Shown piece after piece: positions 5,994-64,000 of a DNA stretch of 64,000 nt. The translations under genes were made by a program, and so were the position numbers. This DNA comes from Myxococcaceae bacterium (GTDB lineage Bacteria > Myxococcota > Myxococcia > Myxococcales > Myxococcaceae), in NCBI GenBank assembly GCA_016793095.1, contig JAEUJQ010000035.1:186001-250000 (forward strand), written 5' to 3'. Every line of letters starts with the position of its first letter. The stretch's first letter is position 1. A model generated the notes under the pieces. That model did not search any database. It saw nothing but the letters and a program-made list of their open reading frames with translations, and was not told the DNA's origin.

Positions 5994-6179
5994 CCGAGGT
6001 GGCAGCGAGTCTCAGGGTCGGCCGCACAGAACCTGGCCGGCGCGGCGCTGCTGACCAGGCTGGGCGGGGCCGTCGCTCCGCTGCGCGGCAACGAGGAGAC
6101 ATCGGCCAGGCAACCCGGGAAGCGGGCGGCCTGACTGAAGCTCGTCCCTCGGCCCCGCGCTCTGGCAGACTGCCGCGCC

Positions 6180-7031: not shown

Positions 7032-7321
7032 CCTGGCGCCTGAAGCGACGAACGGGCGCGACGGGCGGAGTTCTTCCGTGGCGGGCGCCGGAGATTCACT
7101 CGACTGGCGGCGTGGGAGAGACGAACGGGCGCGGAGCGAGCGCCCCGACACCTCACCGGCGCTCCCCTGCGTGCCCCTGAACAGCGACTCGAATGACAGC
7201 GACGTCGTTCGGCTCGCGTTGCAGGTGGCGCGTAGTCCTGGGCGTACGTCATTACCCGCCGGCAGAGGGGCATCCTCCGCGTGGGAACCGCCCGCGCGAA
7301 CGCCGCTCGTCGGCGGAGGAC

Positions 7322-8209: not shown

Positions 8210-8230
8210 GGCTCCTCCGACAAAGACGAA

Positions 8231-8259
8231 GGGCGGCCCCGCGAAGTGCGGAACCGCCC
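8231..8259 (-). terminator. Hairpin terminator-like element after the Cys-rich lipoprotein gene
   Basis: Read on the minus strand, GGGCGG pairs with CCGCCC, and inside it CCGC pairs with GCGG around a short loop. TTCGTCTTT follows. It lies 47 nt downstream of the stop of the gene at 8306-9928 and just before the preferred hslO start at 8209. A Rho-independent or weak terminator is plausible, but no folding energy was calculated. Confidence 0.45.
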
Positions 8260-8305
8260 TGTCGAGCGGCGGGCCCATGCGGGACCCGCCTTCAGCGCGT
8301 CAGGC

Positions 8306-48309: not shown

Positions 48310-48914
48310 GGCACGAAGGGCTGGTCGCCGTGCAGGTGCTCGCGCACGGCGTCGACCGACGGCACGAGCGTCAGCTTCACGCCGACCCGGCCACGCGCGA
48401 GCCGCTTCGGACGGACGCCGATCTCACTGAGCGCCTGCCCGCAGGGCGGCGGCGAGAGGCCGTAGCCGGGATCGAGGCTGTCGGGCGTCCACGTGAGCCA
48501 GGCGTCGGTGGGGCGGTCGAGGGCGAGGTCGAAGCGCAGGCGCTCCTCGCCGGTGAAGCCGCCGGTGGCGAGGCGCGGCGTGACGACGGCGCCGGACTCG
48601 AGCTCGAGCCGGGCGTTGAGGCCGAGGGGATCTGGAACATCGATGTCGAACTCGATGCAGCCCGGGCCGCAGGCAGGGCCCCACGCGGCGGGGCGGAGCT
48701 CGGACTGCGGCGCGACGAGGAAGGCCAGCGCGTACGACGCACGGAAGGGGTGGTGCTCGTACTCAGCCCACGCGCGGAGCACGCGGTGCGGAGCGCGCAG
48801 GCCCCAGGTGAGTGAGCCGAGGAGCGCGAGGAGGAGCCCGGCGGTGACGAGGCGCAGCCGCATGACGATGTGATGCGACGATGGCCCCGGTCGAGCGCCG
48901 GGCGCATCGGTCAT
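48306..48914 (-). CDS. Hypothetical membrane-anchored protein, paralogue of the next gene
   Basis: A 202-aa product from ATG 48914, which overlaps the stop of the RNA methyltransferase gene (ATGA). A shorter start at 48863 begins directly at the hydrophobic helix MRLRLVTAGLLLALLGSLTWG. The mature region carries Cys-containing beta segments (GPACGPGCIEFDIDVPDPLG) and the motif WTPDSLDPGYGLSPPPCGQ shared with its downstream neighbour. I do not recognise the family. Membership in an operon with rsmB-like and HD genes is visible from the spacing, but the functional link is unknown. Confidence 0.6.
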   Translation of the reverse strand: MTDAPGARPGPSSHHIVMRLRLVTAGLLLALLGSLTWGLRAPHRVLRAWAEYEHHPFRASYALAFLVAPQSELRPAAWGPACGPGCIEFDIDVPDPLGLNARLELESGAVVTPRLATGGFTGEERLRFDLALDRPTDAWLTWTPDSLDPGYGLSPPPCGQALSEIGVRPKRLARGRVGVKLTLVPSVDAVREHLHGDQPFVP

Positions 48915-50125
48915 CGGGTGGATGCGTGCTGGAGCACCACGCCGAAGAAGCCGTCGGTGCCGTGGCGGTGCGGGAAGGTGCGCAGGGCGCCGTGCGCGTC
49001 GAGGAGCCCGGTGGGCAGTGGTGGGCGCACGCGGTGGAAGTCGGGGTGCGCGGAGAGGAAGGCGGCGACGACGTCGTCGTTCTCGTCGGAGCGCAGCGTG
49101 CAGGTGGCGTAGACGAGCGTGCCGCCGGGGACCAGGTGGCGCGCGGCGCTGTCGAGCAGCTCGCGTTGAAGGGGCGGCCAGCGGGAGAAGGCGGCCGGGT
49201 CGAGGCGCCAGCGCAGGTCGGGGCCGCGGCGGAGCGCGCCGAGCTCGGAGCACGGCGCGTCGATGAGGACGTGGTGCACGCGGAGGTCGGCGGGGAGCGC
49301 GTGGTGGATTCGAACGGTCGCGCCGGCGCGGGTCGCGCGGGTGCGCAGGCGCTCGAGGCGCTCGTGATCGACGTCGGTGGCGTGGAGGGTGACGTCGGTG
49401 GAGCGGGCGGCGAGCGCGAGGCTCTTGCCTCCCGCGCCGGCGCAGAGATCGAGCACCGACTCGCCGGGCCGCGCGACGACGAGCTGGGCGAGCAGCTGGC
49501 TGCCTTCGTCCTGGAGCTCGAAGAGGCCGTCGCGCCAGGCGCGGGTGGCGGTGAGGTTGGCGGGGCGGGTGGTGACGTGGAGCGCGTCGGGGCTGAAGCG
49601 GCCGGGCTCGGCGTCGCGGTGCTCGGCGGCGAGGAGGGCGCGCAGCGCGTCGCGGGTGCAGCGGGCGCGGTTGACGCGGACGGTGACGGGCCCGGGCACG
49701 TTGAGGGCGTCGGCGAGGGCTTCTGCCTCGGGGCCCACTGCGGCGAGGAGCGCGTCGGCGAGCCAGTCGGGCACCGAGGTGCGGTCGCGCCAGTCGGTGA
49801 GGGGGCGCGCGGGCGGAACGTCGACGCCGAGGAGGCGGGGCGCGTCGGCGGACCCTCCGAGGTCGCGCGCGAGGCAGGCAAGGAGCGCGAGCGGCGGGAG
49901 GTCGCCGACGTGCGCGCGCAGGCGACGGCGCCAGAGGCCCACGCCGAAGAGGGATTCCGAGGTGACCTGGCGCTGGGCGGCGGTGGAGGCCGGGTTCGCG
50001 CGGAGGAGGCGGTCGAGGACGTCGGCGGCCGAGGCGCCCGAGAGGATGGCGTCGAGGGCGGGCGCGAGCGTGGGAGCGAGGCCGTCGAGGGCCCGCCAGG
50101 GGATGTCGCGCAGCCGGGCGATCAT
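48911..50125 (-). CDS. RsmB/NOP-type class I SAM-dependent RNA (cytosine-5) methyltransferase
   Basis: A 404-aa RNA methyltransferase. The SAM-binding motif VLDLCAGAGGKSLALA, the catalytic Cys in IDAPCSELGALRRGPDLRW, and a second Cys in GTLVYATCTLRSDEND match the RsmB/Nop2 group. This group methylates C5 of cytosine in rRNA or tRNA. The N-terminal ~150 residues are helical, like the NusB-like extension of RsmB. The ATG at 50125 overlaps the HD gene stop (ATGA). The exact rRNA target cannot be read from sequence. Confidence 0.9.
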   Translation of the reverse strand: MIARLRDIPWRALDGLAPTLAPALDAILSGASAADVLDRLLRANPASTAAQRQVTSESLFGVGLWRRRLRAHVGDLPPLALLACLARDLGGSADAPRLLGVDVPPARPLTDWRDRTSVPDWLADALLAAVGPEAEALADALNVPGPVTVRVNRARCTRDALRALLAAEHRDAEPGRFSPDALHVTTRPANLTATRAWRDGLFELQDEGSQLLAQLVVARPGESVLDLCAGAGGKSLALAARSTDVTLHATDVDHERLERLRTRATRAGATVRIHHALPADLRVHHVLIDAPCSELGALRRGPDLRWRLDPAAFSRWPPLQRELLDSAARHLVPGGTLVYATCTLRSDENDDVVAAFLSAHPDFHRVRPPLPTGLLDAHGALRTFPHRHGTDGFFGVVLQHASTR

Positions 50126-50715
50126 TCGCGGCCGAGGGCGCGGCGCAGGTTGGCGCGGGCGGGCGCGTCGAGGCGCTCGTGGAAGTGGGCGGAGTGGAAG
50201 AGGCGCGGGGCCTCGAGGAGCTTCGAGAGGAAGCGCCGGCGACCGAGGCGGTAGAGGAGCGCGTTGGTGACGGGGCGGAACTCGTCGGCGATGGCGGCGT
50301 CGTAGGCGTCGAAGGTGGCGGGGTCGGCGCCGAGGATGGCCATGTCGGCGTCGAGGAAGTGGGCGGCGTCGGCGTCGGGGGGCGTGGCGGTGCCGTGCTT
50401 CGCGGTGAGGTCGATGAGGGTGCGCACGTACGCGACGTCGAGGCCAGCGCGCGGGAGGAAGGTGTCGATGGCCTGCGCGGCGAGCTCGGCCGACTTCGCC
50501 TCGTTGTCCTTGCGGCCGGGGACGTAGACGGCGTCGTGGAAGAGCGCCGCGAGGTAGACCTCGGCCGGGCGGGTCCACGAGGGGACTGTCGCCAGGTGGC
50601 GGAGGACTTCCTGCACGTGCGCGAAGGAGTGGTACGCGCGCGGGGGCGTGGCGTAGGCCGAGAGGAGCGCCCGCATGAGGCCTTCAGGGACGTCAATGGG
50701 GGCGAAGGGGGCCAT
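50122..50715 (-). CDS. HD-domain metal-dependent phosphohydrolase-like protein
   Basis: A 197-aa HD-superfamily protein similar to the COG4339 group. Metal ligands occur as AYHSFAHV (H), AALFHDAVY (HD pair) and a later Asp in LDADMAI. The helix VPGRKDNEAKSAELAAQA follows with NE/SA, matching family members. The function may be nucleotide or nucleotide-analogue hydrolysis. It is the first gene of a coupled operon with the RNA methyltransferase, divergent from the tRNA-Asn gene (55 nt apart). Confidence 0.85.
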   Translation of the reverse strand: MAPFAPIDVPEGLMRALLSAYATPPRAYHSFAHVQEVLRHLATVPSWTRPAEVYLAALFHDAVYVPGRKDNEAKSAELAAQAIDTFLPRAGLDVAYVRTLIDLTAKHGTATPPDADAAHFLDADMAILGADPATFDAYDAAIADEFRPVTNALLYRLGRRRFLSKLLEAPRLFHSAHFHERLDAPARANLRRALGRE

Positions 50716-50769: not shown

Positions 50770-50842
50770 TCCTCGATAGCTCAGTCGGTAGAGCGGCGGA
50801 CTGTTAATCCGTAGGTCCCTGGTTCGAGCCCAGGTCGAGGAG
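50770..50842 (+). tRNA. tRNA-Asn (anticodon GTT)
   Basis: A 73-nt cloverleaf. Acceptor stem TCCTCGA pairs with TCGAGGA, followed by discriminator G. The anticodon loop CTGTTAA carries GTT at 50803-50805 (position 34-36), and the T-arm is CTGGTTCGAGCCCAG with the invariant GGTTCGA. CCA is not encoded. Anticodon GTT reads AAC/AAT, giving Asn. It lies between the HD gene operon and the defence-like island. tRNA 3' ends are frequent integration targets. Confidence 0.97.
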
Positions 50843-51139
50843 CTGAATGGAGCCGGAGACCAACCCGGCCGACATCAAGAGTTAACAGCGGCCTCGGAGA
50901 GTGATCTCCGGGGCCGCTGCCGTTTCGGCCCACGTTCCCGAGGCTTTCCACCTGCCCAGCGCCTCTCGAGTGTCTGGACGGCTTTCGAGCAAAGAGCGCC
51001 GCGGGCCGGGCTTAGCGGTCCGCGAGGAGCATCGGGACGGCGTTCAGGCGCTCTCTCAGGGCCTGCGGGGAGAGAGAAACGCAGACCGTTTAACAGCCGA
51101 GCGGGACGGCACCGCGGACGTTTAACTGGCCAGTCCGGG
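50843..51139. other. Non-coding junction after tRNA-Asn
   Basis: A ~300-nt stretch with no convincing gene. It holds a strong hairpin (50887-50918) and three related TTTAAC/GTTAAC tracts (50881-50886, 51087-51092 and 51119-51124). A 74-codon open frame starting at 50901 shows no domain and no credible start signal. This is the left junction of the possible island beginning at 51140, where an attachment site would be expected. No direct copy of the tRNA 3' end is seen in the window. Confidence 0.55.
50887..50918 (+). terminator. Strong hairpin downstream of tRNA-Asn
   Basis: AGCGGCC pairs with GGCCGCT, and GGAGA with TCTCC around a GTGA loop, with a two-base internal mismatch. It is 45 nt after the tRNA end, and GCCGTTTC follows. 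This is the probable tRNA transcript terminator. Confidence 0.7.
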
Positions 51140-52000
51140 CTACTTCTTCGACAACGCCCAGATCAGGCCGACCGCGAGCAGGCCCCCAAGAAGCAGCCCA
51201 GTCCCGTCGTCAGTCGAACTCGGAACGACCACGCTGGCTTCAGGGTTCGCCGAGACAGCGGACGCCTGCTCAGCTACCTGCCGCATCGCAGGCCTCGCCT
51301 CGGGCTGAACGGCGCACATGGCCCCCACGAGCGCCACAAAGCCGCCTGGAAGCGAATGGCCACCCAGGGTCAACGTCGTCCGCTGGCCAGTCAGCAGTTC
51401 GACGGCCACGACTCCCAGCGAGTAGACGTCACACGCATGCGTGAAGGATGCCCCCTTCAACAATTCCGGCGCGCGGTAGCCGTCGGTTCCCCAAGCGGTC
51501 CGCGTCATCAGTCCGGCCGTCTCTGGCTCTCGAGCGACCCCGAAGTCACCTACCTTGATCACAGCACCGGCCTGCGACGGGTGTCGCGCTACGAGAATGT
51601 TGTCGGGCTTGATATCGCGGTGGAAACCGCCCTGGGCGTGCAATGCCGTCAGCCCCGCTGCAGCCTGCGAAATCGCCATGGCAACCTCCCGCCACGGACG
51701 ACGGTTCTGAACCCAGGATCGAAGTGACCCGAACTGACAGAACTCCATGGCGATGAACGGCGGCACGTGGTCGAGACGGGCGTCCAAGACCTCGACAACG
51801 TTGGGATGCGCATAGTCTTGGAGCATCCGAGCTTCACGCCGGAAGCGCTCCGTCTGCGCCATGTTCGTCAGGAACTTGAGCGCGACTTCCCGGCCCGTCG
51901 ATTGATCGATCGCCGCGTAAACCGCGCCGAAAGCCCCATTGCCGATCGGCTGTACCGGTGCGTAGCGACCAGAAATCAGCTGCCCAATCCCGAGGTTCAT
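51140..52000 (-). CDS. Membrane-anchored Ser/Thr protein kinase, last gene of the MADS-like operon
   Basis: A 286-aa eukaryote-like kinase with all key residues: Gly loop G20-NGAFG-25, K42 (VALKF), E56, H127-R-D129 with N134 (HRDIKPDN), D152-F-G, and APE 177-179. It should be active. The C-terminus has one hydrophobic helix (residues ~267-283, LGGLLAVGLIWAL) and ends in SKK, so the kinase faces the cytoplasm from the inner membrane. ATG 52000 overlaps the stop of the ATPase gene as ATGA, so it is translated with it. The region is visibly less GC-rich than the flanking chromosome (37 of 60 bases G/C in 51901-51960). It is not part of the eight mad genes that I remember. Confidence 0.85.
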   Translation of the reverse strand: MNLGIGQLISGRYAPVQPIGNGAFGAVYAAIDQSTGREVALKFLTNMAQTERFRREARMLQDYAHPNVVEVLDARLDHVPPFIAMEFCQFGSLRSWVQNRRPWREVAMAISQAAAGLTALHAQGGFHRDIKPDNILVARHPSQAGAVIKVGDFGVAREPETAGLMTRTAWGTDGYRAPELLKGASFTHACDVYSLGVVAVELLTGQRTTLTLGGHSLPGGFVALVGAMCAVQPEARPAMRQVAEQASAVSANPEASVVVPSSTDDGTGLLLGGLLAVGLIWALSKK

Positions 52001-55000
52001 TTTTTCCCAGTCCCTGCGCCAACCGCCGTCTTGGTTGCGCCTCCATGGTGTGTGACGCGAGGGCGGCATCGAATCTTCACGGCGCCCTTCGTGAATGCGT
52101 CGTCGGTCGCCTTGCTAGACCAGATGAACGCTTCGCCCGGGCGCAGGTTCGACATCTTCTCGGGCGTGAGCGAGCCGAGCGCCGCGTTCGCCTTCTGAAT
52201 GTGCTTGAGCCAGGCGGGCGAGTTGAACTTGTGGAGGATGACCTGGCTGGAGAGCTCAATGAGCGAGATGGGCACCGAGGGCGGATCCTGGCTCGCGACC
52301 ATGATGCTCGTCCCCTTGTGGCGCATCTCGCGCACGACCTCGATAAGGCCGGCCACGAGGTCGGGGCTTTCGATGTACTTGTGGGCCTCGTCGAAGACGA
52401 CGAGCTTGTTGAACGAGTGCTCCGCGCCCTGCGCGTCGCGGTACTTGGCATCGGCGAAGAGTTGGAGGAGCACGACGAAGAGCCCCAGAGCTTCGTCCTT
52501 CTCGATGAACTCGTCGCGCAGGTCGACGATGATGAGACGGCCCGGGCGGATCTCGTCCTTCAGGCGAACCGAGTCGTCGATGTACTCGGCCGCTAGCTCA
52601 AGGCGCATCTTCGCCATGCCCTTGAGGTGATCGGCCAGCGATGAGGCCTCAATCCCTTGATTCAGCCCCTCGAGCGTGAGGTCGTCGCGCAGCGACTTCA
52701 TCACGCGATTGAGCTGGCGAATGTACGTAGCCTGGTTGCCCACCGCCCCCATGAGGAAGCGCCAGTGGCTGGTCTGTAGCTCGGCAGCACCGAACTTCAG
52801 CGGGCGCACCTCGATGTCCGGGTACTCTTGCTTGCGCTCGTCGAGCTTGTCCGCGGGCGCCAGAAGGAGGACGTCGGCGAGAGCGCGGGGCTCGGCGCCG
52901 AAGGTCTCCTTCAGCGCCTTCACCTGGGCGGCCTCGCTGTTCGGCGCGACCATCGACGTGAACTCCGGTCGGTAGTCCATCGTTGGGCTGTAGTGGAAGA
53001 TGACCGTCGCGAGCGGGTTCGGGAGGACGTTGATGTTCGGGATGGGCAGCGAGGCCATCTCCGCAATCGTGCCGAGCGTGTAGCTCTTGCCCCCGCCCTG
53101 GACGCCGAAGAGGCTGATGGTGTGCGTCTGGTTCAGGTCGATCGCGATGCGCCGGCCTGAGACGTCGCCGAGCAGCCCGTACTGGGGCGAGTCCCCGGTC
53201 ACGCCGAGCATGATGTCGTAGGGCACCGCGTGCGCGCTCTTCGCCTCCGGGCTCGGTGCGGGCGGTGGCACCTCCGCTGCCGGGGGCTCGGGAGGCCGCG
53301 CCACGGGCGCGACGTTGGCCACCGTGGCGGCCTTCGGCGGCGGCGCGACGGGCGGGGCCTCCGGCGCGGTGGGGCGCGCTACGGGCGTCACGACGGGCGT
53401 GGGCACGGCCTCCTGCGCGGCGACGGGCGTGTGCGGCGGGACGCTGGGCTGGCGGCCGCGCAGCTCCTCCCACGAGACCGAGCGATCGCGCGGAGAGCCA
53501 AGGAAGGCGGCCGAGTCGAGCGTCGGCACCGAGGGCGCGCGCTCGCGACGACGGCGAACCTCGCTGACACCGCGCGGGCGCGGTCCACCGCCACCGCCTG
53601 GTCCACCGCCCCCCGAGGAGCTGGCGCTGAGGCTCGCCGACGACTCGGTGCTGGGCGCGGCAGCGTCGACGAGCTGACGAATCAGGTCGACGCCGATGCG
53701 GTGGTACTCGATGCCGCTCTCGCTCTCGGGCGGCTCGGTTCCGGGCTTGGCGAAGTCGAAAATGAGAGCGCTGCGCGTGAACGCGAGCTGGTAGCCATCG
53801 TCGAGCGTATGAACAAAGTAGCGCGCCTCGTCGGCGGCCTCGCGGCTGATGGCTCCGTAGCGCTCGGCGCGCTCCAGGTAGAACTCGAGGAGCAGCGCAA
53901 GCTCGCGCGTCTTGAACGCGCGGTCCGGGCGGTCCTGGGGCGTACGCTTAGGATCGAAGTGGTGCGCGAGCACCTCCTCGCTCTGGCCGATCTGCTCGGC
54001 GATGCTCGACTTGAGCGCGTTGTAGGCAGCGAGGTCGCCGACGCCCGAGTAGCACTTCACCTCGACGAGGCGGCACGTGATGATGCGCCGGGTGGTGTCG
54101 AGATCGAAGAGCCCGAGGTCCGTGCGCTTGAAGCTGACCTCGTCGCCCAGCTCGTCGGCTCCCTGCTTCAGCACGCGGTACAGCTCGAGATGCGCGTCGA
54201 GCGGGACGACGATCTGGTTCTCGAAGACGCCCTGGTGTTCGAGGTAGAGGCGCGAGAGGGCCAGGCCCAAGGCTTCCGCCCGCTGCGTCGGCGACGAGAT
54301 GAGCTTCAGCGCGAGCCGGCCGGACAGCGACCGGAGCTGGTCGAGTAGCACCACGGCGTGGCGGCCCTCGGCCTGAAGCCCGTATTGCTCGAGGACCGGA
54401 CGCAGGAGCGCCTCGAGCTCAGCGACCGAACGGGACGTGATGACAAGCCGATGCCCCAACGTGCTCGCCATGTCCGGCGAGTGGTCGATGAGGTAATCCG
54501 GCCGCGTCGCGTGCCCGCCGTGGTCGAAAAACTCGATGCCGAGATTGCGGTCGAGCGTGAACACCCAGTCGCTCACCTCGTGAACCTGATGGAGAAGCGC
54601 ACGGTCGTCGGGACCGAGCGCCAGGCTCACGACGGGACGGAGGTCGATACCGCTCTGGCCAGTGGCGATGGTCGCTGTCGCGCTCGACATCGAGGCGGCG
54701 AGTTTGCCGAGCAGGTCGGAGAGTTCCTCTGCGTCTTCGATGGGCTGGGCCACGCCGTGGCGCGGGAGGCGGCGCCACGCAACGGTCAGCTCGTCCTCGT
54801 GGTACTCGGTCGAGAACTCCTGCACGAGGCCGTGAACGAACGCCGTCGCGTGGCGAGGATCGGACTTGCGCGCGCCAACTTCCTCGGCCGGGAAGACGTC
54901 GAAGAGCAGCGACAGGTGGGCCGCGTGGGTATCCGGGCTGATGCGGAAGTCCTTGGTCGAACGCACCGCGAAGCGCAGCTTCGGGTGAAGGTGCGTCTCG

Positions 55001-57570
55001 GCCGGAATGGAGAACGCGTCCGCTTCACGCGTGTTCGTGCCTCCATCAGGCGTGAGCAATGCGGCGATCTCGTCGCCGACCCCGGGCGCGTCGGGATCGG
55101 GCACGAAGAGCCGGATGTCGTAGCGAAGGTCGGCGAAGGCCGACTCCTTCTGCAGCTCGAGTAGCATGTCTCCGAGCACGCCAGCGCGGCCCGGATTGAA
55201 CGCGTTAATGGTCAGCGTGCGGACGTACGGGTGCTGCACGAGGTAGCGCCGCACGCGAGACGCGAGGTACTTGCCATCGATTAGCGCACCGCCGATGGCA
55301 GGCTCGGGCAGGCCCAGCGCACTGCAGACCTCGCCGACGAGGCCGCGAGGGTCCTCCTCGTTCGACGGCGCGAAGAGCGTCCAGAACGGGTTGATGCTGT
55401 CGACGGCGGTCAGCACGTGGCCCGCCTCCGTCGGCAGAACCGGCGGGAAGCTCGTTGGCGACAGCAGCTTCAGCAGCGCCTCGCGCGTCGGGACCACATA
55501 CTCCTGCGGCGCGCTCCTCGCGGCCGCAACCCACTGGGCGCCGAGCTTCGCCCACGTGGCAAACCACAACGCCCGCAGCGGGTGCGTGGGCGCTACGAGG
55601 ACGGCGTCGCGGCGACGACCACGGTGATCGACGATGGCGAGAAGCACGGAGTCGAGCGCGAGGATCTTGCGCAGGTCTGCGAAAGCCCGCTGCGAGTCGC
55701 TCTTCGCCGTCGCTTCCGCTCGCTGGGCTAGGTCCGCCAGCAGCGCGAGATAAGCACCCGCGTAATCGCTCGCGAGATCGGTGTTCGCCCCAGCGTCGAC
55801 GCCCTGCGTGACCAACTCCGAGGTGCCGCTCCGTACCGCCGCGAAGTAGCGGGTACGCGCTTCAAGGAAACGATCGCCAGCGGCGCCCTGCGGCCAGCCG
55901 TTGACCTCACCGGTGCTCGTCCCCGGCACGCCGTGATTCACCGGGATGCGCCAGCTAATCGGACCGTCGGGCGCAGCGAGGATCTTCTGCTCGATGTTCT
56001 TGAGTGCGCGAGAGACCGGCACATGCACCGCGCCCTCGCGTCCAAGCTTCACCTCCAGCATGTCGGCACCGGAGACATGCCCCTTGGTCTTCTCTGCCCA
56101 CGCGGCGTGCCCGAAAACGACGCTCGTCGGATCGCGGTCGTCGAGAATGGCCTTGAACTGCGCACGGAAGAGGGCGTGCAACGCGCTCGGCTCGCGCTGC
56201 ACGGCACGCTGCGCGGGCTCGATTTCCACCTCGGTGTCAGGCAGGACATAAAACAGATCGCTCTCGTTTGGCCGGGGCGCTGTCTCGTCCGCGTCTGCGC
56301 TCCACGCGACGGCATCGCCGTTCGCGTCGACGAGCGGAATGAGATCCCCGCTCTCGGTCTGCGCGAGGAGCCGAATGAAGTGCCAGCCCTCTTCCCAGTC
56401 GATCTTGCCGAGCGCCGAGAACGAGATTGTCGCCTTGTCAGTCGCCGTCTTCCACACGGCCTTGCTGCGGGCGAGACCGATGGGACCATGTTCCTTGGAG
56501 ATGACCTGCGCGACGAACTTCGCGAGGCCCTGCACCTTGCTCGGGTGCGGCTCCGTGCGGAACGTGACGTTGAACTTCTTGAGGTTGCTGACCGGCAGAA
56601 TGCACTGCCCGATGAGCTGCGCGAGCGGCTCCTTGGTCTCGTCGCCGGCGACCTTCGGTAGGTCCGTCTGCACCTCGCCGACAAAGATGGCGTCAGGTTG
56701 GACGCCGCCGTCTTCGAACTCCCACTTGTTGAAGGCGAGCTGCCAGAGCGCCTTGTCGACGACGATGCGGCGCGCCCACTGGCGCGGGTCGTCTGTGCCC
56801 GCCTCGGCGAGGAAGTTGCCAAGTAGGTTCTTGAAGGCGCGCTTGGAGAGCCCCAGTTCACCCACGCGACCGCGCTCCGATCGCGGCGACCAGGTCAGCT
56901 TCTCGACGCTCTCGCGGTTGCGCACGAGGCGGGTCGGGGCCTTCTCTGGCTGCACCAGCCACTCGAAGTCGGGCACCAACCCCACCTCGTAGAGCGACGC
57001 TCCGAGCGCCTCGCCGTCGTTGCCGTTCACCTTCGCCGTCAGGAGAAAGCGCACCGTCGAGAGCGCATCCGCGAAACGCCACGAACGCTCACCACCACGC
57101 TGCCGTCGGAGCGACTCATGGACGCCACCACGTAGCGTTGAAGGCAGCTCGCCGAGTAGCTTCTCGATGAGCGCCTCGTAAAGGCCGGTGACCGAGACCT
57201 CCTCGAACGTCGCCACGCCGAAAGAGTCCTCGGCCGAAGCGCGTACGTCGCTGGGAACAAACACGAGGAGCGGCGGGCGCTGGGTGCCGTCGGCGTGGGG
57301 ATTGCGCAGCTCGACGAGTTTCGTGCTCGACACCGCGAGCTCGGCGGGGATGCTCAGCTTACCGTCGGTGAGAACCACGACCGTCGTGTTGGGCAGCTCG
57401 GCGCGAAGCCGCGCGCAGAGCCGCACCATCAGCTCGGCGTCGAGGTCGCTCACGCGCATGCAGTGACCGGCCACGCGTGTGCGGAGCTGCTCGACGAGCA
57501 ACGGCACGGCGACGTTCTCCAGCTCGTTGGTGAGATGCGTCGTGGACAGCTCCTGGAACCCAGCGCTCAC
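51997..57570 (-). CDS. MAD8-like ATP-binding protein (HerA/DUF87-type ATPase fusion)
   Basis: An 1857-aa protein starting at GTG 57570, preceded by AGGAGGAACGCC. The C-terminal ~400 residues form a HerA/FtsK-like ATPase: Walker A GVQGGGKSYTLG near 1490, Walker B LVVFDEAHKYI near 1727, and arginine-rich GTSIMVASQDPPSV. The region before (~1310-1450) is a Gly/Pro/Ala linker. Around 1155-1170 lies a possible PD-(D/E)xK nuclease element (FDLDTTRRIITCRLVEVKCY). The N-terminal ~1100 residues are unrecognised. Gene order with the neighbours and the architecture match MAD8 of the methylation-associated defence system as I remember it. No search was run. Its stop overlaps the kinase ATG. Confidence 0.82.
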   Translation of the reverse strand: MSAGFQELSTTHLTNELENVAVPLLVEQLRTRVAGHCMRVSDLDAELMVRLCARLRAELPNTTVVVLTDGKLSIPAELAVSSTKLVELRNPHADGTQRPPLLVFVPSDVRASAEDSFGVATFEEVSVTGLYEALIEKLLGELPSTLRGGVHESLRRQRGGERSWRFADALSTVRFLLTAKVNGNDGEALGASLYEVGLVPDFEWLVQPEKAPTRLVRNRESVEKLTWSPRSERGRVGELGLSKRAFKNLLGNFLAEAGTDDPRQWARRIVVDKALWQLAFNKWEFEDGGVQPDAIFVGEVQTDLPKVAGDETKEPLAQLIGQCILPVSNLKKFNVTFRTEPHPSKVQGLAKFVAQVISKEHGPIGLARSKAVWKTATDKATISFSALGKIDWEEGWHFIRLLAQTESGDLIPLVDANGDAVAWSADADETAPRPNESDLFYVLPDTEVEIEPAQRAVQREPSALHALFRAQFKAILDDRDPTSVVFGHAAWAEKTKGHVSGADMLEVKLGREGAVHVPVSRALKNIEQKILAAPDGPISWRIPVNHGVPGTSTGEVNGWPQGAAGDRFLEARTRYFAAVRSGTSELVTQGVDAGANTDLASDYAGAYLALLADLAQRAEATAKSDSQRAFADLRKILALDSVLLAIVDHRGRRRDAVLVAPTHPLRALWFATWAKLGAQWVAAARSAPQEYVVPTREALLKLLSPTSFPPVLPTEAGHVLTAVDSINPFWTLFAPSNEEDPRGLVGEVCSALGLPEPAIGGALIDGKYLASRVRRYLVQHPYVRTLTINAFNPGRAGVLGDMLLELQKESAFADLRYDIRLFVPDPDAPGVGDEIAALLTPDGGTNTREADAFSIPAETHLHPKLRFAVRSTKDFRISPDTHAAHLSLLFDVFPAEEVGARKSDPRHATAFVHGLVQEFSTEYHEDELTVAWRRLPRHGVAQPIEDAEELSDLLGKLAASMSSATATIATGQSGIDLRPVVSLALGPDDRALLHQVHEVSDWVFTLDRNLGIEFFDHGGHATRPDYLIDHSPDMASTLGHRLVITSRSVAELEALLRPVLEQYGLQAEGRHAVVLLDQLRSLSGRLALKLISSPTQRAEALGLALSRLYLEHQGVFENQIVVPLDAHLELYRVLKQGADELGDEVSFKRTDLGLFDLDTTRRIITCRLVEVKCYSGVGDLAAYNALKSSIAEQIGQSEEVLAHHFDPKRTPQDRPDRAFKTRELALLLEFYLERAERYGAISREAADEARYFVHTLDDGYQLAFTRSALIFDFAKPGTEPPESESGIEYHRIGVDLIRQLVDAAAPSTESSASLSASSSGGGGPGGGGGPRPRGVSEVRRRRERAPSVPTLDSAAFLGSPRDRSVSWEELRGRQPSVPPHTPVAAQEAVPTPVVTPVARPTAPEAPPVAPPPKAATVANVAPVARPPEPPAAEVPPPAPSPEAKSAHAVPYDIMLGVTGDSPQYGLLGDVSGRRIAIDLNQTHTISLFGVQGGGKSYTLGTIAEMASLPIPNINVLPNPLATVIFHYSPTMDYRPEFTSMVAPNSEAAQVKALKETFGAEPRALADVLLLAPADKLDERKQEYPDIEVRPLKFGAAELQTSHWRFLMGAVGNQATYIRQLNRVMKSLRDDLTLEGLNQGIEASSLADHLKGMAKMRLELAAEYIDDSVRLKDEIRPGRLIIVDLRDEFIEKDEALGLFVVLLQLFADAKYRDAQGAEHSFNKLVVFDEAHKYIESPDLVAGLIEVVREMRHKGTSIMVASQDPPSVPISLIELSSQVILHKFNSPAWLKHIQKANAALGSLTPEKMSNLRPGEAFIWSSKATDDAFTKGAVKIRCRPRVTHHGGATKTAVGAGTGKK

Positions 57571-59252
57571 GGCGTTCCTCCTGTGGCCGTGTCGCCCTCG
57601 GCGATGCGGAATCTCGGCGTGATGGTCTGCGTGACGTAGGCGTCGGAGAGATCGCGGTAGAAGCCGACCTCGCGAAGCCGCCCGGTGAACGCGCGGACGT
57701 TGTCGCGTAGCGCACGACGGTCCTCGATACTGGTCGTCGCGAAGCCATCACCGCGCGGCAACTGGTCGATGAAGATGCCGTAGCGCTCACGCAAGAACAC
57801 GAGCAGCTCGTCAACGCGCATCTCGCCCGTGTGAAAGCCGCCGTCCGTACCCTGCTTCAGCACAGCGATCTGGAGCAGCACCTCGAGCAGCCGGCTGTCG
57901 AGGACGAAGCGGCGAGGCGCCTCCTTCGTTCGGCCCTGCGCGATGAGCGCGCCGGCGCGGTTCTTCAAGAGGAGTGAGTCGAGGCACTGCGTGACGTACT
58001 TGCGGTGGAACGGACCACGCAGCGCGACGATCATCTCGATGTATGCGTCGAACTCCGAGAGGCCCATCTCGGTGACGGCCTTCACCTCGGGGTCGAGCTC
58101 GGCGTCCTTCGCGCCCGACGTCTCTTCCACGAGGCCCGACACGCGCTGGCCGAAGAACTTCTCGCGCTCGGCCTTCAGCGGCGCGTCGAGGAGCTGCAGC
58201 ACCTCTCCCACCGAGAATTCGCCGCTGGTCGGCTTCGTGAGCTTGCCCCGACGAACGAGATCTGTGGCGAACTCGTCGAGCTTCTTGGTCGCGAAGTACG
58301 CTCGCAAGAAGCCCGGGATGCGCCGGTAGTGCGTGTCGGCGCTGCGTTCAGCGAGCGTAGCCATCGGAGTACCGGGCTGGCCTGCGACATCGACCAGCAG
58401 GCCCACGCGGTACGGGCAGTCGCCGAACGGGTTCTCCAGGCTCTTGGGGTTCATCGGGCACGCGCCCGTCGCGCACGTTGGATCAGCACCCTTCCTGCGA
58501 ACCAGCGCTGGCAGGAGCTTTAAGAGGCGCAAGTGATAGAGCCCGAGGTGGAAGGCGATGAGCACCTTCAGGTACTCGACCATCACCGAGCGCGGGATGA
58601 AGCGCTGGTAGAACAGCAGGCGCTGGATGTCCTCGGCGAGGAGATCGGCGGCCCCTACGCAGAGGGGCGAAAACGAATCGCGCCCCGACTTCGTGTCCGG
58701 CGCATCTCCCTTCACCTCGTCAAGGAGTCGAAGCAGCGCCTGGGTCTCGACGTCGATCACCGCTCCCGCGTTGGCCTTGCCCGTGACCTTGTCGTGGCCC
58801 TGGAAGAAGAAGTGGTGCAGGTGCTCGAGTGCCTTCTGCCCGGCGCCTTTCCGCGCCATGTAGAGCATCTCGTACAGGTGCTGCGCAGCGCCGTAGTCGC
58901 GCGAGTGCTTCGGGTTGCGGAAGCGGTACGTGAACCCGTGGAGCGGGCGCGGCGCTGCCAGGGCCTCGTTCGCCTTACCTCGGTTCACGAGGTCGAGAAG
59001 ATGCGTCTCGACCCAGCGGCGGACGACGTCGGGGTTGTCCTGGAACTTCGTGAACCACTCGGGGTGCTCGAAGGTAAACTCGACGAAGGCGTCGACGCTG
59101 AGTTCGAAGTTGCGTGTCAGGCGGCTCGGGTAGCCGTTGTGCGCGAGCCGCGCGAAGAACGCGGTGAGCACGCGGTCCATCTCGAGGTGCTTGAAGTCGA
59201 GGTAGCTGATCTTCGGGAGCCGGAACTCTCGATCGCGCTTGGACAGTGACAT
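57567..59252 (-). CDS. MAD7-like protein of the methylation-associated defence system
   Basis: A 561-aa soluble protein without a domain I can name. The ATG at 59252 overlaps the preceding stop by one base (TGATG), and the stop overlaps the GTG of the ATPase (GTGA), so it is translated as part of the operon. The N-terminal half is helical (FTFEHPEWFTKFQDNPDVV, HLYEMLYMARKGAGQKALEHLHHFFFQGHDK). A Cys cluster near residues 257-277 (CATGACPMNP, then GDCPYR) could bind zinc or an Fe-S centre. The C-terminal region has winged-helix-like character (ELLVFLRERYGIFIDQLP). Position between the kinase-like and ATPase genes is the basis for MAD7. Confidence 0.75.
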   Translation of the reverse strand: MSLSKRDREFRLPKISYLDFKHLEMDRVLTAFFARLAHNGYPSRLTRNFELSVDAFVEFTFEHPEWFTKFQDNPDVVRRWVETHLLDLVNRGKANEALAAPRPLHGFTYRFRNPKHSRDYGAAQHLYEMLYMARKGAGQKALEHLHHFFFQGHDKVTGKANAGAVIDVETQALLRLLDEVKGDAPDTKSGRDSFSPLCVGAADLLAEDIQRLLFYQRFIPRSVMVEYLKVLIAFHLGLYHLRLLKLLPALVRRKGADPTCATGACPMNPKSLENPFGDCPYRVGLLVDVAGQPGTPMATLAERSADTHYRRIPGFLRAYFATKKLDEFATDLVRRGKLTKPTSGEFSVGEVLQLLDAPLKAEREKFFGQRVSGLVEETSGAKDAELDPEVKAVTEMGLSEFDAYIEMIVALRGPFHRKYVTQCLDSLLLKNRAGALIAQGRTKEAPRRFVLDSRLLEVLLQIAVLKQGTDGGFHTGEMRVDELLVFLRERYGIFIDQLPRGDGFATTSIEDRRALRDNVRAFTGRLREVGFYRDLSDAYVTQTITPRFRIAEGDTATGGTP

Positions 59253-62200
59253 CAGACCGCTCCCTCTTGGGCGCGCGTCATCTCGAGGCGGCCATCGGCT
59301 TGGCGAGCGACGCGGTAGAAGTCATGGCCCGACGTGCTGAGCAGCACCTCCTGGTAGGGCGCAGAGCCGAGCAAGTTCTTGAAGACCGCGAGGCTCAGGT
59401 AGTAGCCCTGCTCCTCCTCGACGCTTGGGCGGTAGCCCTCGTTCAGGCGCCGGAGCATCTCGTAGACGTCGAGCGAGACGAGCAGCTCCGCATCGAGACC
59501 CGCAGAGTCGTGGTAGCGAAGTAAGAGCCCCGTGGGCATGTGTTCGACGAAGCGCGAGCGCGAGGCATGGTCGTTCAGCGACACAGAGAAGCGCTCGCGC
59601 GGGTAGAGCCGGTAGGAGCGCACGCTGCCACCTTCGACGCGGCGAACCTCCAACGCGAGGTTGTTACCGATGCGCTCAGGCCGCGTGAGCCCCTCGCCTC
59701 GGTTGATGGCGACGAGCAGCGGCTCGAGCAGCCCCTCGGCGCCCTTGTCGCCGCGCACCACCGCGAGCAGCTCGTCGGCGGTCTTGTACGGGAGCATCGA
59801 GCGCCAGCCCGCGTCACGCCGCTCGAAGAACGCGCGCCTGCGCGCCATCGCGATGAAGCGCCGGTGCGAATCGGCGCGATGCTCGCTTGCCTTGCCCGAG
59901 ACGTCACGCGGCAGCTCGTCGTAGAGGCTGCGGAGGATCTCGCGGTCGTAGGCGCCGCGCTGCTCGAATCGGAACAGCGTGCGGTCCTCGGTGGGCGAGA
60001 CGAAGTCGAGCGCGCGGTCGAGGCGCGGATCGTCGGCCGCCGCGACGTCGACCTCGGAGAGCAGCGTAAGCAGGCGATCGGCGTTGGGGGCGTCGCCGCC
60101 TTTCCAACTGTTGAAGTAGAAGCCCTGCACGATCTCGTTGCGCTGGCCGTTCTTGTACAGCGCGTGGATCTCATCGCAGTCGCGCGTGCCCACCAGCATG
60201 TACGCGAGCGCCGAGCGCAAATCGCGCAGCGTGATGTGCAGGCGCCCGCGCAGGTGCGTGATGGCGTAGAGGCTCTTCAGTCTTTCGACGACGTGCTTCC
60301 CCGCGGTCTCGTCCTGGATGGTCTGCGCGTTGTGGAACGCGTAGCAGCGGTCCTTCAGGTCGCAGCCATGGCAGGGCTCCCAGAACTTCTCATGCGTCAT
60401 GCGGTTCACGAGACGCTCGAGGATCGAGTTGTCGAAGCCTTGCGGGTCGACGACGACGCTGCGGAGATTCAAGTTCACGACGGCCACGCCATCGGTGGGC
60501 TCGCCCGTGCGGAGTCCCTCCTTCACCAGCGTGGCGAGCGCGGGAAAGTCTGCGCGGTTCGCCTCGAGGAAGTCGACGAGGCGCCCCTCGTTGATGGCGA
60601 TGAGTCGCGTCTCCTTCGTCGCTGCCCATCCCTTCGAGTCGTTGCCCTTGAAGGGGGCGAGGAAGGCGCGCAGCACATCGTCGTTCTTCTGGTCGCCCTC
60701 GTCCTGGCTGCCGTCGTAGTTCGAGAGGAACGTGCGCCCGCGCAGCTCAATGCGTGCGCCGTTCGGCAGCGAGTGGTCGACGGTGGCCTGTTCGTCGGCA
60801 GCCCTCCGTTCTAGCTTCTGCAGGAAGGCCGTCTTCCCATCGCCTGCATTGCCAGAAATGATGACGAGCGCGAATTCACCGGAGAGCACTGACGGCAGCA
60901 GCTCACGGTCGAGCGCGGTCTCGACATAGGTCTGCTCACTGATGACATCGAGGCCGCGCGTGCCCGCGTTGCTGTGCTTGCTCTGGCTGTAGACCGTGAG
61001 CAGATGGCGGACGTACGGGTTCGTGTTCGGAGGGATCGCTCCACCCGAGCCGCCGTTCCCGTTGCCATTGCGCTTGCCGTTTCCGCCGTCTCCCGGCACG
61101 CCCCACGCGATCGGCACCGGTGTGAGGGGCTGCGGCGCACGCCGCGCCGCCGGAATGCTGGTCAACGCGCTCCGCAGGTCGGCGGCGGATGCATAGCGGT
61201 CTGCACGCTTGGGCGCGATGGCCTTGAGCATCACGTCGACCAACTCGGGCGCGATGTCGGCGAGGCCCGACAGCTCGCGCGGATCGGCGGCGGGCTTGCC
61301 TGGCGGCGGGACCTGCGCGTTGTCCCACGGGTAGCGGCTCGTCATCGCCTCGTAGAGCGTGAGCCCAAGCGCGTAGAGATCACGATCGACGAGATCGCTT
61401 GCCGAAGGAACGTCCTCAAGCACGAGGTCGGGCGGCAGGTAGCGACGCGAGCCGCCGCCACGGCGCTCCTCGTCCTTCGCCGCGACCGATACGTTGAAGT
61501 CGATGATCTTCGTGCCGCGCCCAGTCCACAACAGGTTTCGAGGCTTGATGTCGCAGTGGTAGACGCCGTGCTCGTGCAGGTGCACGAGGCCTGTCGCGAC
61601 GTGCCGCCCGAGCTCGAGCGCGTCTTCGCGGGTCAGCGCGTTGCTCTCGATCATCTCGCCGACGTCAAAGCCCTCGATGAACTCGAAGACGATGAAGGGA
61701 GGACCGCCGGGGATGAGATCGGCGTCGATCACCTTCACCACGTTCTGGTGGTCGGGGATCTGAAGGAGCGTCTTGTACTCCTTCTTGAGGCGGTCGACCG
61801 TAGACACGCGGTCGCGCAACACCAGCTTCACAGCGCGCGAAACGTCGCCGAGCGTGTCGATGACCTTGTACGCGACCGCGAACGAGCCCGGCTTGCCGAG
61901 CCGCTTCTCGATGACGTACTTCGGCGTGAGCTGGGTGTTCGCGAGCAGGTTTGAGTAATCGAGCTGAGGCGCGGCGGGCTCGGCTGACGACGCCGATGGA
62001 GCCGCGCCGACTGCAGGCGCAGAGGCGGCGCTGGGGTCGAGGAGGATCTTCAGCTCGGTGAGTGCCCACGCCGCCGAGGGCCGATCGCCTGGCTCGAAGG
62101 TGCAGAGCTTCTGCAGCCAGGCGTCGAAGCCCGTGGGCAGCTCGGGGCGCGCAGAGCTGGGCTTCACCGCGAAGACGGCCTTCTGCTCGAACAGCTCGGT

Positions 62201-63421
62201 CGGCGTCTTGAACGGCCGCTCACCCGTGAACAGCTCGTAGAGCACGAGGCCAACGCTGAAGAGATCCGAGGCAGGCGTCGCGGCGGCGGGCTCGCCGTGG
62301 ATCTCGGGCGCCATGTACTTGGGCTCGAGGTCGTCGACGATCTCCTGCGCGATGGTGCGGCTGTGGTCGGTGCCCGGGCGCGCGAAGTCGAATCCTGTCA
62401 GCCGCATGCGGCCGTCGCTGCCGACGAGGATGTTCGCGGGCGAGATGTTGCGGTGAACGACCTTGTGCTGCGCAAGGTGGACGAGCGCGCTCAGGAGGTC
62501 GCCAGCGACGGTATTCTTCTGGTCGAGCGTGAGCGCAAGGGTGGGCTTGGCGATGTGGACGCGCAGCGCCTGCCCGGCGACGTCCTCGGTGACCAGGAAG
62601 TACTTGTCCTCGGCCTCGCTCGGGAAGAAGTCGCGCACGCCGACAATGCCCGGGTGGCCCGGCGTGGTGCTGAGCGTGCGGAACGCCGTCGAGATGAGGA
62701 GCTTCTGCTTCTCGCGCTCGTCCGGCGGCCTGTACGGGTCGGCCTGGTAGGCGCGGATGAGCGCCGTCGACTTCGGCCCCGCAAAGGCGTTGTGCGCGCG
62801 GTACTCGGTGTAGCTGTCGGTGCCACCCAGCCGCTCGGAGACCACCCAGCTCCCGAAGCGCAGCGGACCCGAGCGCGGCCTCGCTACGCCCTGCAGCGCC
62901 TTCATGATGATGTTGTGGTGCGCGCCGATGTTCTTCGATTTGCCGGCAGGGATGCGCGCCGCGTTCTGGAAGAAGGCCGTTGCTTTCTTGAGCGTGGTGA
63001 CATTCGGGGCGTCGCGCCCGCCCGGATCGGCCAGCGTGGCGTCAGGGGCCGTGAGCACGACGGCGGCGTCGACGTAGATGTCGTCGAGGTCGCGGCGTCC
63101 GGGCTGGCTGCCGGTGATGATGCCCTTCACCGCCTTGGCGTGCCCGCGCAGCTTGGCGAGCGGCGAGCTGAAGGCTTGGCGCCCCTCCGGGTACCACTTG
63201 GAGCCGTAGACATCGATAAGGCCGCGTGTGCCCTTCACGTCGACGAGGAAGACGGCGTGCGGCGCGATGATCGCGACGTCGACCTCGAAAGTCTCGCCGT
63301 CGCGCACGATCTCGAAGTTGTGCAGGATGAGGTAGCTCGCCGGCAGATGATCCCGCAGGGTAGCGATGGCCTGGCGCTCGGCCTCGTTCACCGGCTCGCC
63401 GATGGGAATCACCGTGGCCAT
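59252..63421 (-). CDS. MAD6-like multidomain protein: NERD + two kinase folds + P-loop NTPase
   Basis: A 1389-aa protein. Domains in order: NERD nuclease-related (~15-110; FEVDVAIIAPHAVFLVDVKG gives the D...DxK motif); first kinase fold (~225-500) with HRN in place of HRD (HRNISPANILV) and no usual VAIK Lys, so probably a pseudokinase; linker; second kinase fold (~555-800) with HCDIKPRN (HCD near 622), DFN in place of DFG, and AVK lysine, so activity is possible; Gly/Asn linker; P-loop region (~830-1389) with Walker A GNAGDGKT near 860 and Cys motif CHGCDLKDRCYAFH near 1020. Its ATG at 63421 overlaps the upstream stop by one base. Architecture corresponds to the protein kinase MAD6. Confidence 0.85.
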   Translation of the reverse strand: MATVIPIGEPVNEAERQAIATLRDHLPASYLILHNFEIVRDGETFEVDVAIIAPHAVFLVDVKGTRGLIDVYGSKWYPEGRQAFSSPLAKLRGHAKAVKGIITGSQPGRRDLDDIYVDAAVVLTAPDATLADPGGRDAPNVTTLKKATAFFQNAARIPAGKSKNIGAHHNIIMKALQGVARPRSGPLRFGSWVVSERLGGTDSYTEYRAHNAFAGPKSTALIRAYQADPYRPPDEREKQKLLISTAFRTLSTTPGHPGIVGVRDFFPSEAEDKYFLVTEDVAGQALRVHIAKPTLALTLDQKNTVAGDLLSALVHLAQHKVVHRNISPANILVGSDGRMRLTGFDFARPGTDHSRTIAQEIVDDLEPKYMAPEIHGEPAAATPASDLFSVGLVLYELFTGERPFKTPTELFEQKAVFAVKPSSARPELPTGFDAWLQKLCTFEPGDRPSAAWALTELKILLDPSAASAPAVGAAPSASSAEPAAPQLDYSNLLANTQLTPKYVIEKRLGKPGSFAVAYKVIDTLGDVSRAVKLVLRDRVSTVDRLKKEYKTLLQIPDHQNVVKVIDADLIPGGPPFIVFEFIEGFDVGEMIESNALTREDALELGRHVATGLVHLHEHGVYHCDIKPRNLLWTGRGTKIIDFNVSVAAKDEERRGGGSRRYLPPDLVLEDVPSASDLVDRDLYALGLTLYEAMTSRYPWDNAQVPPPGKPAADPRELSGLADIAPELVDVMLKAIAPKRADRYASAADLRSALTSIPAARRAPQPLTPVPIAWGVPGDGGNGKRNGNGNGGSGGAIPPNTNPYVRHLLTVYSQSKHSNAGTRGLDVISEQTYVETALDRELLPSVLSGEFALVIISGNAGDGKTAFLQKLERRAADEQATVDHSLPNGARIELRGRTFLSNYDGSQDEGDQKNDDVLRAFLAPFKGNDSKGWAATKETRLIAINEGRLVDFLEANRADFPALATLVKEGLRTGEPTDGVAVVNLNLRSVVVDPQGFDNSILERLVNRMTHEKFWEPCHGCDLKDRCYAFHNAQTIQDETAGKHVVERLKSLYAITHLRGRLHITLRDLRSALAYMLVGTRDCDEIHALYKNGQRNEIVQGFYFNSWKGGDAPNADRLLTLLSEVDVAAADDPRLDRALDFVSPTEDRTLFRFEQRGAYDREILRSLYDELPRDVSGKASEHRADSHRRFIAMARRRAFFERRDAGWRSMLPYKTADELLAVVRGDKGAEGLLEPLLVAINRGEGLTRPERIGNNLALEVRRVEGGSVRSYRLYPRERFSVSLNDHASRSRFVEHMPTGLLLRYHDSAGLDAELLVSLDVYEMLRRLNEGYRPSVEEEQGYYLSLAVFKNLLGSAPYQEVLLSTSGHDFYRVARQADGRLEMTRAQEGAV

Positions 63422-64000
63422 CAGTTCGTGGCTCCCTTCTCTATGGCGTGCTCGACCTTCTTGGTCGCCGAGCGGACACTCGCGGACGCCTCGTCTTCGA
63501 GCTTCCACGATTCGAGAACGGGCTCGGCGATCCGCTTGCGAACTGCGCTCGACGGCCAAGGCAGGCGAAGTGCCCCAATGTGTGCCGGATCCAGCTGAGG
63601 GATCGAACTGCCGAAGGCGTTTCGCGTGATCGCTCGGTACCCGTGCGGCGACGACAGCACCACGGAGAGGTAGGCGGCAGTCTCCGCGTCTTCGGGAGCG
63701 ATGCGCATCAGATGGTTGGACACGACCGACTTATCAACAGCAGGCGTAGCCCTCACGAGTCGACCGATGAGTCCTTCGAGCTGGCCAGCGTCCTGAATGA
63801 GGAGCCAGTTCTCGCGGACGATGTAGTCCTCGATCTTCGGCGCACGGCGGCTGAGGTGACCGCGCGGCTCTGGGTCGTACTGGAATAGCTCGGTGCCCGA
63901 GAAGTACGGATAGCCGTAGCTCGGGTCATCGACGTGGATGCGTTTGAAGATCCCCGGCGTGAACACCCGCGCTACTTCGTCGAGCCGCTTTGTGTCGCCA
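63421..64000 (-). CDS. HsdS-like specificity subunit (MAD5-like), 5' end beyond window
   Basis: The last 192 codons of a gene that enters from the right edge. The frame is open across base 64000 (GDTKRLDEVARVFTPGIFKR), so the N-terminus is missing. The visible region resembles the C-terminal target recognition half of a type I restriction specificity subunit: YFSGTELFQYDPE, KIEDYIVRENWLLIQDAGQLEGLIGRLV, the AYLSVVLSSPHGYRAITRNAFGSSIPQLDPAHIGALRLPWP core, and a terminal helix (KRIAEPVLESWKLEDEASASVRSA) suited to a coiled coil. In MADS an S-like protein directs methylation by the methyltransferase MAD2. TGATG links it to the next gene. Confidence 0.8.
   Translation of the reverse strand, partial: GDTKRLDEVARVFTPGIFKRIHVDDPSYGYPYFSGTELFQYDPEPRGHLSRRAPKIEDYIVRENWLLIQDAGQLEGLIGRLVRATPAVDKSVVSNHLMRIAPEDAETAAYLSVVLSSPHGYRAITRNAFGSSIPQLDPAHIGALRLPWPSSAVRKRIAEPVLESWKLEDEASASVRSATKKVEHAIEKGATN

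What the first reader, a model, noticed from the sequence alone, without database searches (positions are those of the whole stretch)
51140..64000. Half of a methylation-associated defence (MADS-like) operon at the right edge
Reading the minus strand, the coupled order is S subunit, NERD/double-kinase/P-loop protein, 561-aa protein, 1857-aa HerA-type ATPase, kinase. I recall mad5-mad6-mad7-mad8 in this order from the published MADS of Pseudomonas (2024, eight genes, with a methyltransferase MAD2 and AAA ATPase MAD3). All five genes overlap by 1-4 nt. This would be MADS in a myxobacterium, a phylum not in my memory of that work. The identification is by architecture; homology was not tested.
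Basis: partly seen in the sequence, partly recalled or inferred. Interest (0 to 1): 0.88.

Follow-up and report, generated by a model that had tools for sequence, protein, structure and literature searches.

The report
Complete MADS phage-defence operon in myxobacterium
The genes at the right edge of this window, plus the 5 kb beyond it, form a complete eight-gene copy of MADS, a bacterial anti-phage system already published in 2024; it is a correct identification but an ordinary member of a widespread family, and its DNA-attacking half looks related to another known defence module (SspFGH), which suggests how it may work.

Summary
The contig continues 5,786 bases past the window and carries the missing genes. 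PADLOC profiles for mad1 to mad8 all match, in the published order, on one strand, with neighbouring genes overlapping by 1-8 nt. The 1857-aa Mad8 and 1389-aa Mad6 are normal sizes for the family. MADS in Myxococcota is not a first: Sorangium cellulosum So ce26 and three myxobacterial MAGs carry copies with 88-89% identical Mad7, and 207 Mad7-encoding loci were found across many phyla. Three points go beyond the finding. (1) The Mad6 C-terminus, Mad7 and Mad8 are collinear, distant homologues of SspF, SspG and SspH, so the restriction half is probably a translocating nicking complex held off by methylation. (2) Mad3-Mad4 is an OLD-like ATPase plus a TOPRIM-like protein, an optional cassette absent from the closest myxobacterial relatives. 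(3) The terminal kinase is found in none of the other loci examined; that slot holds different defence genes elsewhere. Function was not tested. Verdict: new member of a known kind.

The parts
63421..64000 (-). mad5, type I-like specificity (S) subunit, C-terminal part; gene continues to window-equivalent 64818 (L003 3421-4818)
   Evidence: PADLOC mad5 149 bits full length; Methylase_S
59252..63421 (-). mad6, 1389 aa: NERD nuclease-like domain, two kinase-like domains, SspF-like P-loop ATPase
   Evidence: PADLOC mad6 433 bits; Pfam NERD, Pkinase x2; SspF 92 bits over ORF residues 896-1285
63050..63388 (-). NERD domain of Mad6 with conserved E-x-D and D-x-K
   Evidence: Pfam PF08378; E46, D48, K63 invariant and D61 95% (E in the rest) in about 80 homologues
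62072..62698 (-). first kinase-like domain of Mad6, probably a pseudokinase (HRD reads HRN)
   Evidence: N at the catalytic Asp position in 75% of homologues
61145..61918 (-). second kinase domain of Mad6, probably active
   Evidence: Lys 99%, HxD 100%, DFN 100% conserved
59705..60874 (-). SspF-like P-loop ATPase region of Mad6 with CxxC..C zinc-like motif
   Evidence: PADLOC SspF 92 bits; Walker A GNAGDGKT invariant
57567..59252 (-). mad7, 561 aa, SspG-like at its C-terminus; no similar solved fold found
   Evidence: PADLOC mad7 538 bits; all 40 homologues scanned also hit SspG
51997..57570 (-). mad8, 1857 aa, SspH/DndH-like nuclease-translocase
   Evidence: PADLOC mad8 148 bits, DndH 18 bits; about 1850 aa in annotated relatives
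54055..54120 (-). putative PD-(D/E)xK nuclease motif of Mad8 (RTD1151...E1170-V-K1172)
   Evidence: D1151, E1170, K1172 100% conserved in about 80 homologues
52021..53190 (-). HerA-type ATPase domain of Mad8, Walker A FGVQGGGKSYTLG and Walker B KLVVFDEAHKYI
   Evidence: PADLOC mad8 model 12-314; motifs at or near 100% conserved
51140..52000 (-). coupled Ser/Thr kinase, 286 aa, all catalytic motifs present, C-terminal hydrophobic segment; accessory, not a core MADS gene
   Evidence: Pfam Pkinase; no equivalent next to mad8 in the other loci examined
50770..50843 (+). tRNA-Asn at the left border of the operon (possible island boundary, not a MADS part)
   Evidence: G+C falls from about 0.70-0.77 to 0.64-0.68 here

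Best explanation
This is a complete, apparently intact eight-gene MADS locus (mad1-mad8) in a myxobacterium. Mad2 (N6 DNA methyltransferase) with Mad5 (specificity subunit) marks host DNA at a sequence set by Mad5. Mad6-Mad7-Mad8 form the attacking complex: Mad8 is a HerA-type motor with an internal PD-(D/E)xK-like nuclease motif, Mad7 is a bridging subunit with an SspG-like C-terminus, and Mad6 adds an SspF-like ATPase fused to a NERD nuclease-like domain, a pseudokinase and a kinase. By homology to SspFGH and analogy with DndFGH, which translocate on or damage DNA that lacks the self mark, the complex probably loads on unmethylated phage DNA, moves along it and nicks it, and is restrained on host DNA by methylation; the Mad6 kinase probably gates this by phosphorylating a partner. 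Mad3-Mad4 (OLD-like ATPase and TOPRIM-like protein) is an optional add-on, probably a second, PARIS-like sensor/effector arm. Mad1 is probably the operon regulator. Shown: identity, order, motif conservation, homology to SspFGH. Inferred: every biochemical step.
For: All eight PADLOC mad models hit in order. Intact reading frames and conserved catalytic motifs. HMMs built here from MADS proteins only score SspF 38.8, SspG 16.4 and SspH 17.7 bits; the best of 1000 shuffles of each (369-434 of them gave a reported score) reached 5.0, 1.1 and 3.0, and the matches are collinear with the same gene order in a real ssp locus. All 40 Mad7 homologues hit the SspG model. Mad5 is 26-44% identical to relatives whose Mad6-8 are 81-91% identical, as expected of a swappable specificity gene. 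The Mad4 model (pLDDT 87) matches OLD TOPRIM regions best, Z 9.7 (6nk8) and 8.9 (6njw), clearly unrelated folds starting at 6.5; Mad3's best solved relative is an OLD nuclease, 2.8e-14. DndFGH: 2:2:1 complex, translocation-coupled nicking repressed by the self mark (PMC11662687); SspFGH damages DNA lacking the mark (PMC8092258).
Against: No activity, methylation site or phage resistance was tested here. Mad2 scores higher against PADLOC's generic MTase_II model (901 bits) than against mad2 (312), so its label rests on context. The SspG and SspH similarities are weak (16-18 bits) and, for SspG, confined to the C-terminal 60 residues. The Mad8 E-x-K motif is not clearly aligned in SspH. Mad7 matched no solved fold. 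A 2026 review still lists the MADS restriction mechanism as unknown (PMC12904381).
Confidence: 0.72

Rival explanations
1. Two or three independent systems happen to sit side by side: a type I/II-like modification pair (Mad2-Mad5), an OLD/PARIS-like pair (Mad3-Mad4) and an SspFGH-like effector (Mad6-7-8).
For: Mad2 scores best against a generic MTase model; Mad3-Mad4 is absent from the closest relatives and lies on the opposite strand in Leptolyngbya L043.
Against: Methyltransferase, S subunit, mad6, mad7 and mad8 are adjacent and same-strand in nearly all loci with enough sequence, across phyla, and here every junction overlaps by 1-8 nt. Only Mad3-Mad4 behaves as separable.
Confidence: 0.08
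2. Defence works mainly by stopping or killing the infected cell (Mad3-Mad4 or the kinases act on host targets), not by attacking phage DNA.
For: Mad3-Mad4 resembles OLD/PARIS pairs whose TOPRIM member is a toxic tRNase (PMC12409363); the end kinase resembles PD-T4-6 (165 bits).
Against: Of the 69 loci classed by architecture, 42 lack a mad3-mad4 pair in the operon yet keep methyltransferase, S subunit and mad6-8, so the pair is unlikely to be the essential effector; the TOPRIM glutamate is not conserved in Mad4.
Confidence: 0.14
3. The coupled kinase at 51140-52000 is a ninth, functional MADS component in this strain that feeds into the Mad6 kinase.
For: 4-nt overlap with mad8; complete kinase motifs; its best PADLOC hit is mad6 (207 bits).
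Against: Only 30% identical to Mad6; not seen beside mad8 in the other loci; the same slot holds a CD-NTase-like gene in G006, a SAVED protein in L018 and a PP2C phosphatase in Bacteroides, so it looks like a site where unrelated defence genes land.
Confidence: 0.2

Closest known systems
MADS, methylation-associated defence system (Maestri et al. 2024, doi 10.1016/j.chom.2024.07.005; PADLOC mad1-mad8)
   Same: All eight genes, same order, same domain content; published as eight genes with nuclease, ATPase, kinase and methyltransferase domains (paper not held here; its content is from memory and from citing papers).
   Different: An extra coupled kinase after mad8; host is a myxobacterium.
SspFGH restriction module of phosphorothioate defence (PMC8092258)
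   Same: Three consecutive genes F-G-H collinear with Mad6 C-terminus, Mad7, Mad8; SspH 1783 aa versus Mad8 1857 aa.
   Different: No phosphorothioation genes; self mark is methylation; Mad6 adds NERD and two kinase domains.
DndFGH
   Same: F-G-H order; weak DndH similarity in Mad8 residues 950-1098; motor plus nuclease logic.
   Different: Only a weak match; no dnd modification genes in this locus.
PARIS AriA-AriB, OLD nucleases and PADLOC HEC-01
   Same: Mad3 ATPase and Mad4 TOPRIM-like fold; MADS is already listed among systems with this pairing (PMC12409363).
   Different: Split into two genes and embedded as an optional cassette between mad2 and mad5.
BREX type 2 PglW
   Same: NERD plus kinase region of Mad6 (PglW 197 bits, residues 60-802).
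   Different: No PglZ, BrxC or PglX among the operon proteins' listed hits.

Membership tests
MADS | mad1 (HTH) first in the operon | tested here: met
   71-aa HTH_17 protein, PADLOC mad1 61 bits
MADS | mad2 N6 DNA methyltransferase with intact motifs | tested here: met
   PADLOC mad2 312 bits; N6_Mtase 110 bits; NPPF motif; generic MTase_II scores higher
MADS | mad3 AAA ATPase and mad4 | tested here: met
   mad3 157 bits, mad4 48 bits, adjacent with 4-nt overlap
MADS | mad5 S subunit, mad6 kinase, mad7, mad8 ATPase in this order | tested here: met
   149, 433, 538 and 148 bits, 1-4 nt overlaps
MADS | Methylation-dependent self/non-self discrimination and phage restriction | not testable with these tools
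   needs long-read methylome and phage assays
Ssp (SspABCD-SspFGH) | Collinear F-G-H effector module | tested here: met
   HMM scores above all shuffles and collinear
Ssp (SspABCD-SspFGH) | Phosphorothioation genes sspBCD next to sspFGH | tested here: not met
   the upstream genes are mad5-mad1; no ssp or dnd modification gene between mad6 and the contig end
PARIS | AriA ATPase with AriB TOPRIM nuclease as a stand-alone pair | tested here: inconclusive
   AriA 93 bits for Mad3; OLD TOPRIM fold for Mad4; embedded, not stand-alone; catalytic Glu not conserved
BREX | pglZ and brxC/pglY in the operon | tested here: not met
   not among the listed PADLOC hits of the nine operon proteins
Type I restriction-modification | hsdR with hsdM and hsdS | tested here: not met
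   no HsdR in the operon; only an HSDR_N-like domain inside Mad2

The most novel reading that the evidence does not exclude
MADS is a three-module chimera whose parts have separate histories: a type I-like methylation marker with swappable specificity, an SspFGH-type translocating nickase put under kinase control, and an optional OLD/PARIS-like alarm cassette. If so, the unknown MADS mechanism is translocation-coupled nicking licensed by unmethylated sites and gated by phosphorylation, and the closest myxobacterial relatives are natural variants without the alarm cassette.
Probability: 0.45. Interest if true: 0.55.

Novelty: new member of a known kind. Interest (0 to 1): 0.33.

Why it matters
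It confirms a tool-free identification and adds a myxobacterial eight-gene MADS locus. The wider value is the testable link between MADS Mad6-8 and SspFGH, which offers a concrete mechanism for a system whose restriction step is still listed as unknown, and the set of natural variants with and without mad3-mad4, with one or two methyltransferase genes, and with swapped mad5, which can be compared to assign jobs to each gene.

Tried and rejected
Split or unusual mad8: rejected, because about 1850 aa is standard in annotated relatives and the PADLOC model covers only the C-terminus. Kinase as duplicate of a Mad6 domain: rejected at 30% identity. Kinase as conserved ninth gene: not seen elsewhere. 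MADS on phages: no Mad7 match in the phage collection. Fold of Mad7: good model (pLDDT 85.5) but no PDB match with E under 0.001. Foldseek alone on Mad4 was uninformative; only the realignment of its top 1000 hits brought out OLD TOPRIM. SspG search in 144 relatives and 30 MADS genomes found nothing; an order-wide search around the Aeromonas genome was needed. Second copy of the tRNA-Asn 3' end as an attachment site: none found in the assembly with up to 3 mismatches. Recombinase identity of the small ORFs upstream of mad1: no Pfam or plasmid match, left open. The MADS paper itself is not in the library.

Full report
Observation. The window is C47:186001-250000 of an 8.8-Mb genome in 93 contigs. 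Using the best start codons, junctions overlap by 1 nt (mad5/mad6, mad6/mad7) or 4 nt (mad7/mad8, mad8/kinase).

Completing the operon. C47 runs on for 5,786 bases (L003; window position = L003 position + 60000). On the minus strand it carries mad5 (to L003 4818), mad4 (4815-5447, 210 aa), mad3 (5444-6733, 429 aa), mad2 (6730-8844, 704 aa) and mad1 (8837-9052, 71 aa), with 4-8 nt overlaps. PADLOC matches all eight mad models in the published order. Mad2 scores higher against a generic PADLOC methyltransferase model, so its name rests on position.

How common it is. A genome scan with a Mad7 alignment gave 207 loci that encode relatives; the best 80 span Myxococcota, Pseudomonadota, Actinomycetota, Cyanobacteriota, Acidobacteriota and others. 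Sorangium cellulosum So ce26 (L069) and MAGs L018-L020 carry close copies (Mad7 88-89%). In the Mad7 tree the window joins those four in one supported group (SH-aLRT 96), next to Pseudomonadota such as Bradyrhizobium and Methylibium at 85-86% identity, which suggests transfer between phyla. Within the phylum it is rare: 4 of 99 relatives at E 1e-20, 2 of 195 genomes at E 1e-100. Piscinibacter carries the full set on a plasmid.

Architecture variants. Among 69 loci with enough upstream sequence, 27 have mad3-mad4, 20 have one methyltransferase and no mad3-mad4 in the operon, and 22 have two mad2-like genes and no mad3-mad4. On the Mad7 tree, presence of mad3-mad4 needs at least 13 changes (some long branches make the exact count unsure). 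All four myxobacterial relatives lack the pair. In Leptolyngbya L043 the pair sits on the opposite strand just past mad8. Mad3-Mad4 is thus a movable cassette. Mad3 resembles OLD and PtuA/AriA ATPases. Mad4 is weakly DUF4276-like (4 of 26 members) and its predicted structure realigns best to OLD TOPRIM regions. The ATPase-TOPRIM pairing in MADS has been noted in print (PMC12409363), so it is not new; its mobility was measured here.

Specificity swapping. Against relatives with 81-91% identical Mad6-8, Mad5 is only 26-44% identical, the pattern of an exchanged DNA-recognition subunit.

The restriction half. PADLOC already flags SspF in Mad6 (92 bits, residues 896-1285), SspG in Mad7 and, weakly, DndH in Mad8; all 40 Mad7 homologues hit SspG. 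A bona fide ssp locus was fetched (L117: three upstream genes, one of them a PP-loop protein like SspD by eye, then F, G, H). HMMs built from MADS proteins alone score its SspF, SspG and SspH above every shuffled control, in collinear segments. Mad8 has an invariant D1151...E1170-x-K1172 signature upstream of its HerA motor; Mad6 has an invariant P-loop, a probable pseudokinase, a probable active kinase and a NERD domain with an intact D-x-K. DndFGH is a translocation-coupled nickase repressed by the self mark (PMC11662687) and SspFGH damages unmarked DNA (PMC8092258). I therefore propose the same logic with methylation as the mark. I did not find this MADS-SspFGH link stated in the held library, but the MADS paper itself is not held, so I do not claim priority.

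The extra kinase. The 286-aa kinase overlaps mad8 by 4 nt, has intact motifs and a hydrophobic C-terminus, and has no closer relative than 41% identity in its own genome. None of the other loci examined shows a kinase there. The slot instead holds a CD-NTase-like gene followed by a two-helix membrane protein (G006), a SAVED protein (L018), a PP2C phosphatase (Bacteroides plasmid) and others. I read it as an accessory defence gene, with a minority chance of being functionally tied to MADS.

Setting. The operon ends about 300 bp from a tRNA-Asn, where G+C drops, which fits an acquired island. No second tRNA end was found and the contig ends 0.7 kb past mad1, so the far border is unknown.

Verdict. 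What remains interesting is the mechanistic link and the natural variants.

Noticed in passing
window 50770-50843: tRNA-Asn directly beside the left end of the operon with a G+C drop; possible integration site, but no second copy of its 3' end was found in the assembly.
   Followed up: partly
L003 9151-9786 (window-equivalent 69151-69786): Two small overlapping minus-strand ORFs upstream of mad1 at the contig end; the outer one resembles, by eye, the C-terminus of a serine recombinase, but no family matched.
   Followed up: partly
L008 3602-5165 (G006): A genus-mate's MADS is followed, with a 4-nt overlap, by a CD-NTase-like (SMODS) gene and a two-helix membrane protein, which looks like a small CBASS unit joined to the end of the MADS operon.
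   Followed up: partly
L018 17252-18811: A SAVED-domain protein follows mad8 in another myxobacterial MADS locus.
   Followed up: partly
L017 21118-21783: In a Bacteroides plasmid a PP2C phosphatase overlaps the end of mad8, a possible opponent of the Mad6 kinase.
   Followed up: no
L043 17347-19082: mad3-mad4 on the opposite strand just past mad8 in Leptolyngbya, showing the pair can move as a unit.
   Followed up: yes
window 48306-50696: 796-aa minus-strand ORF with a TTG start, high G+C and no Pfam match next to the tRNA.
   Followed up: no
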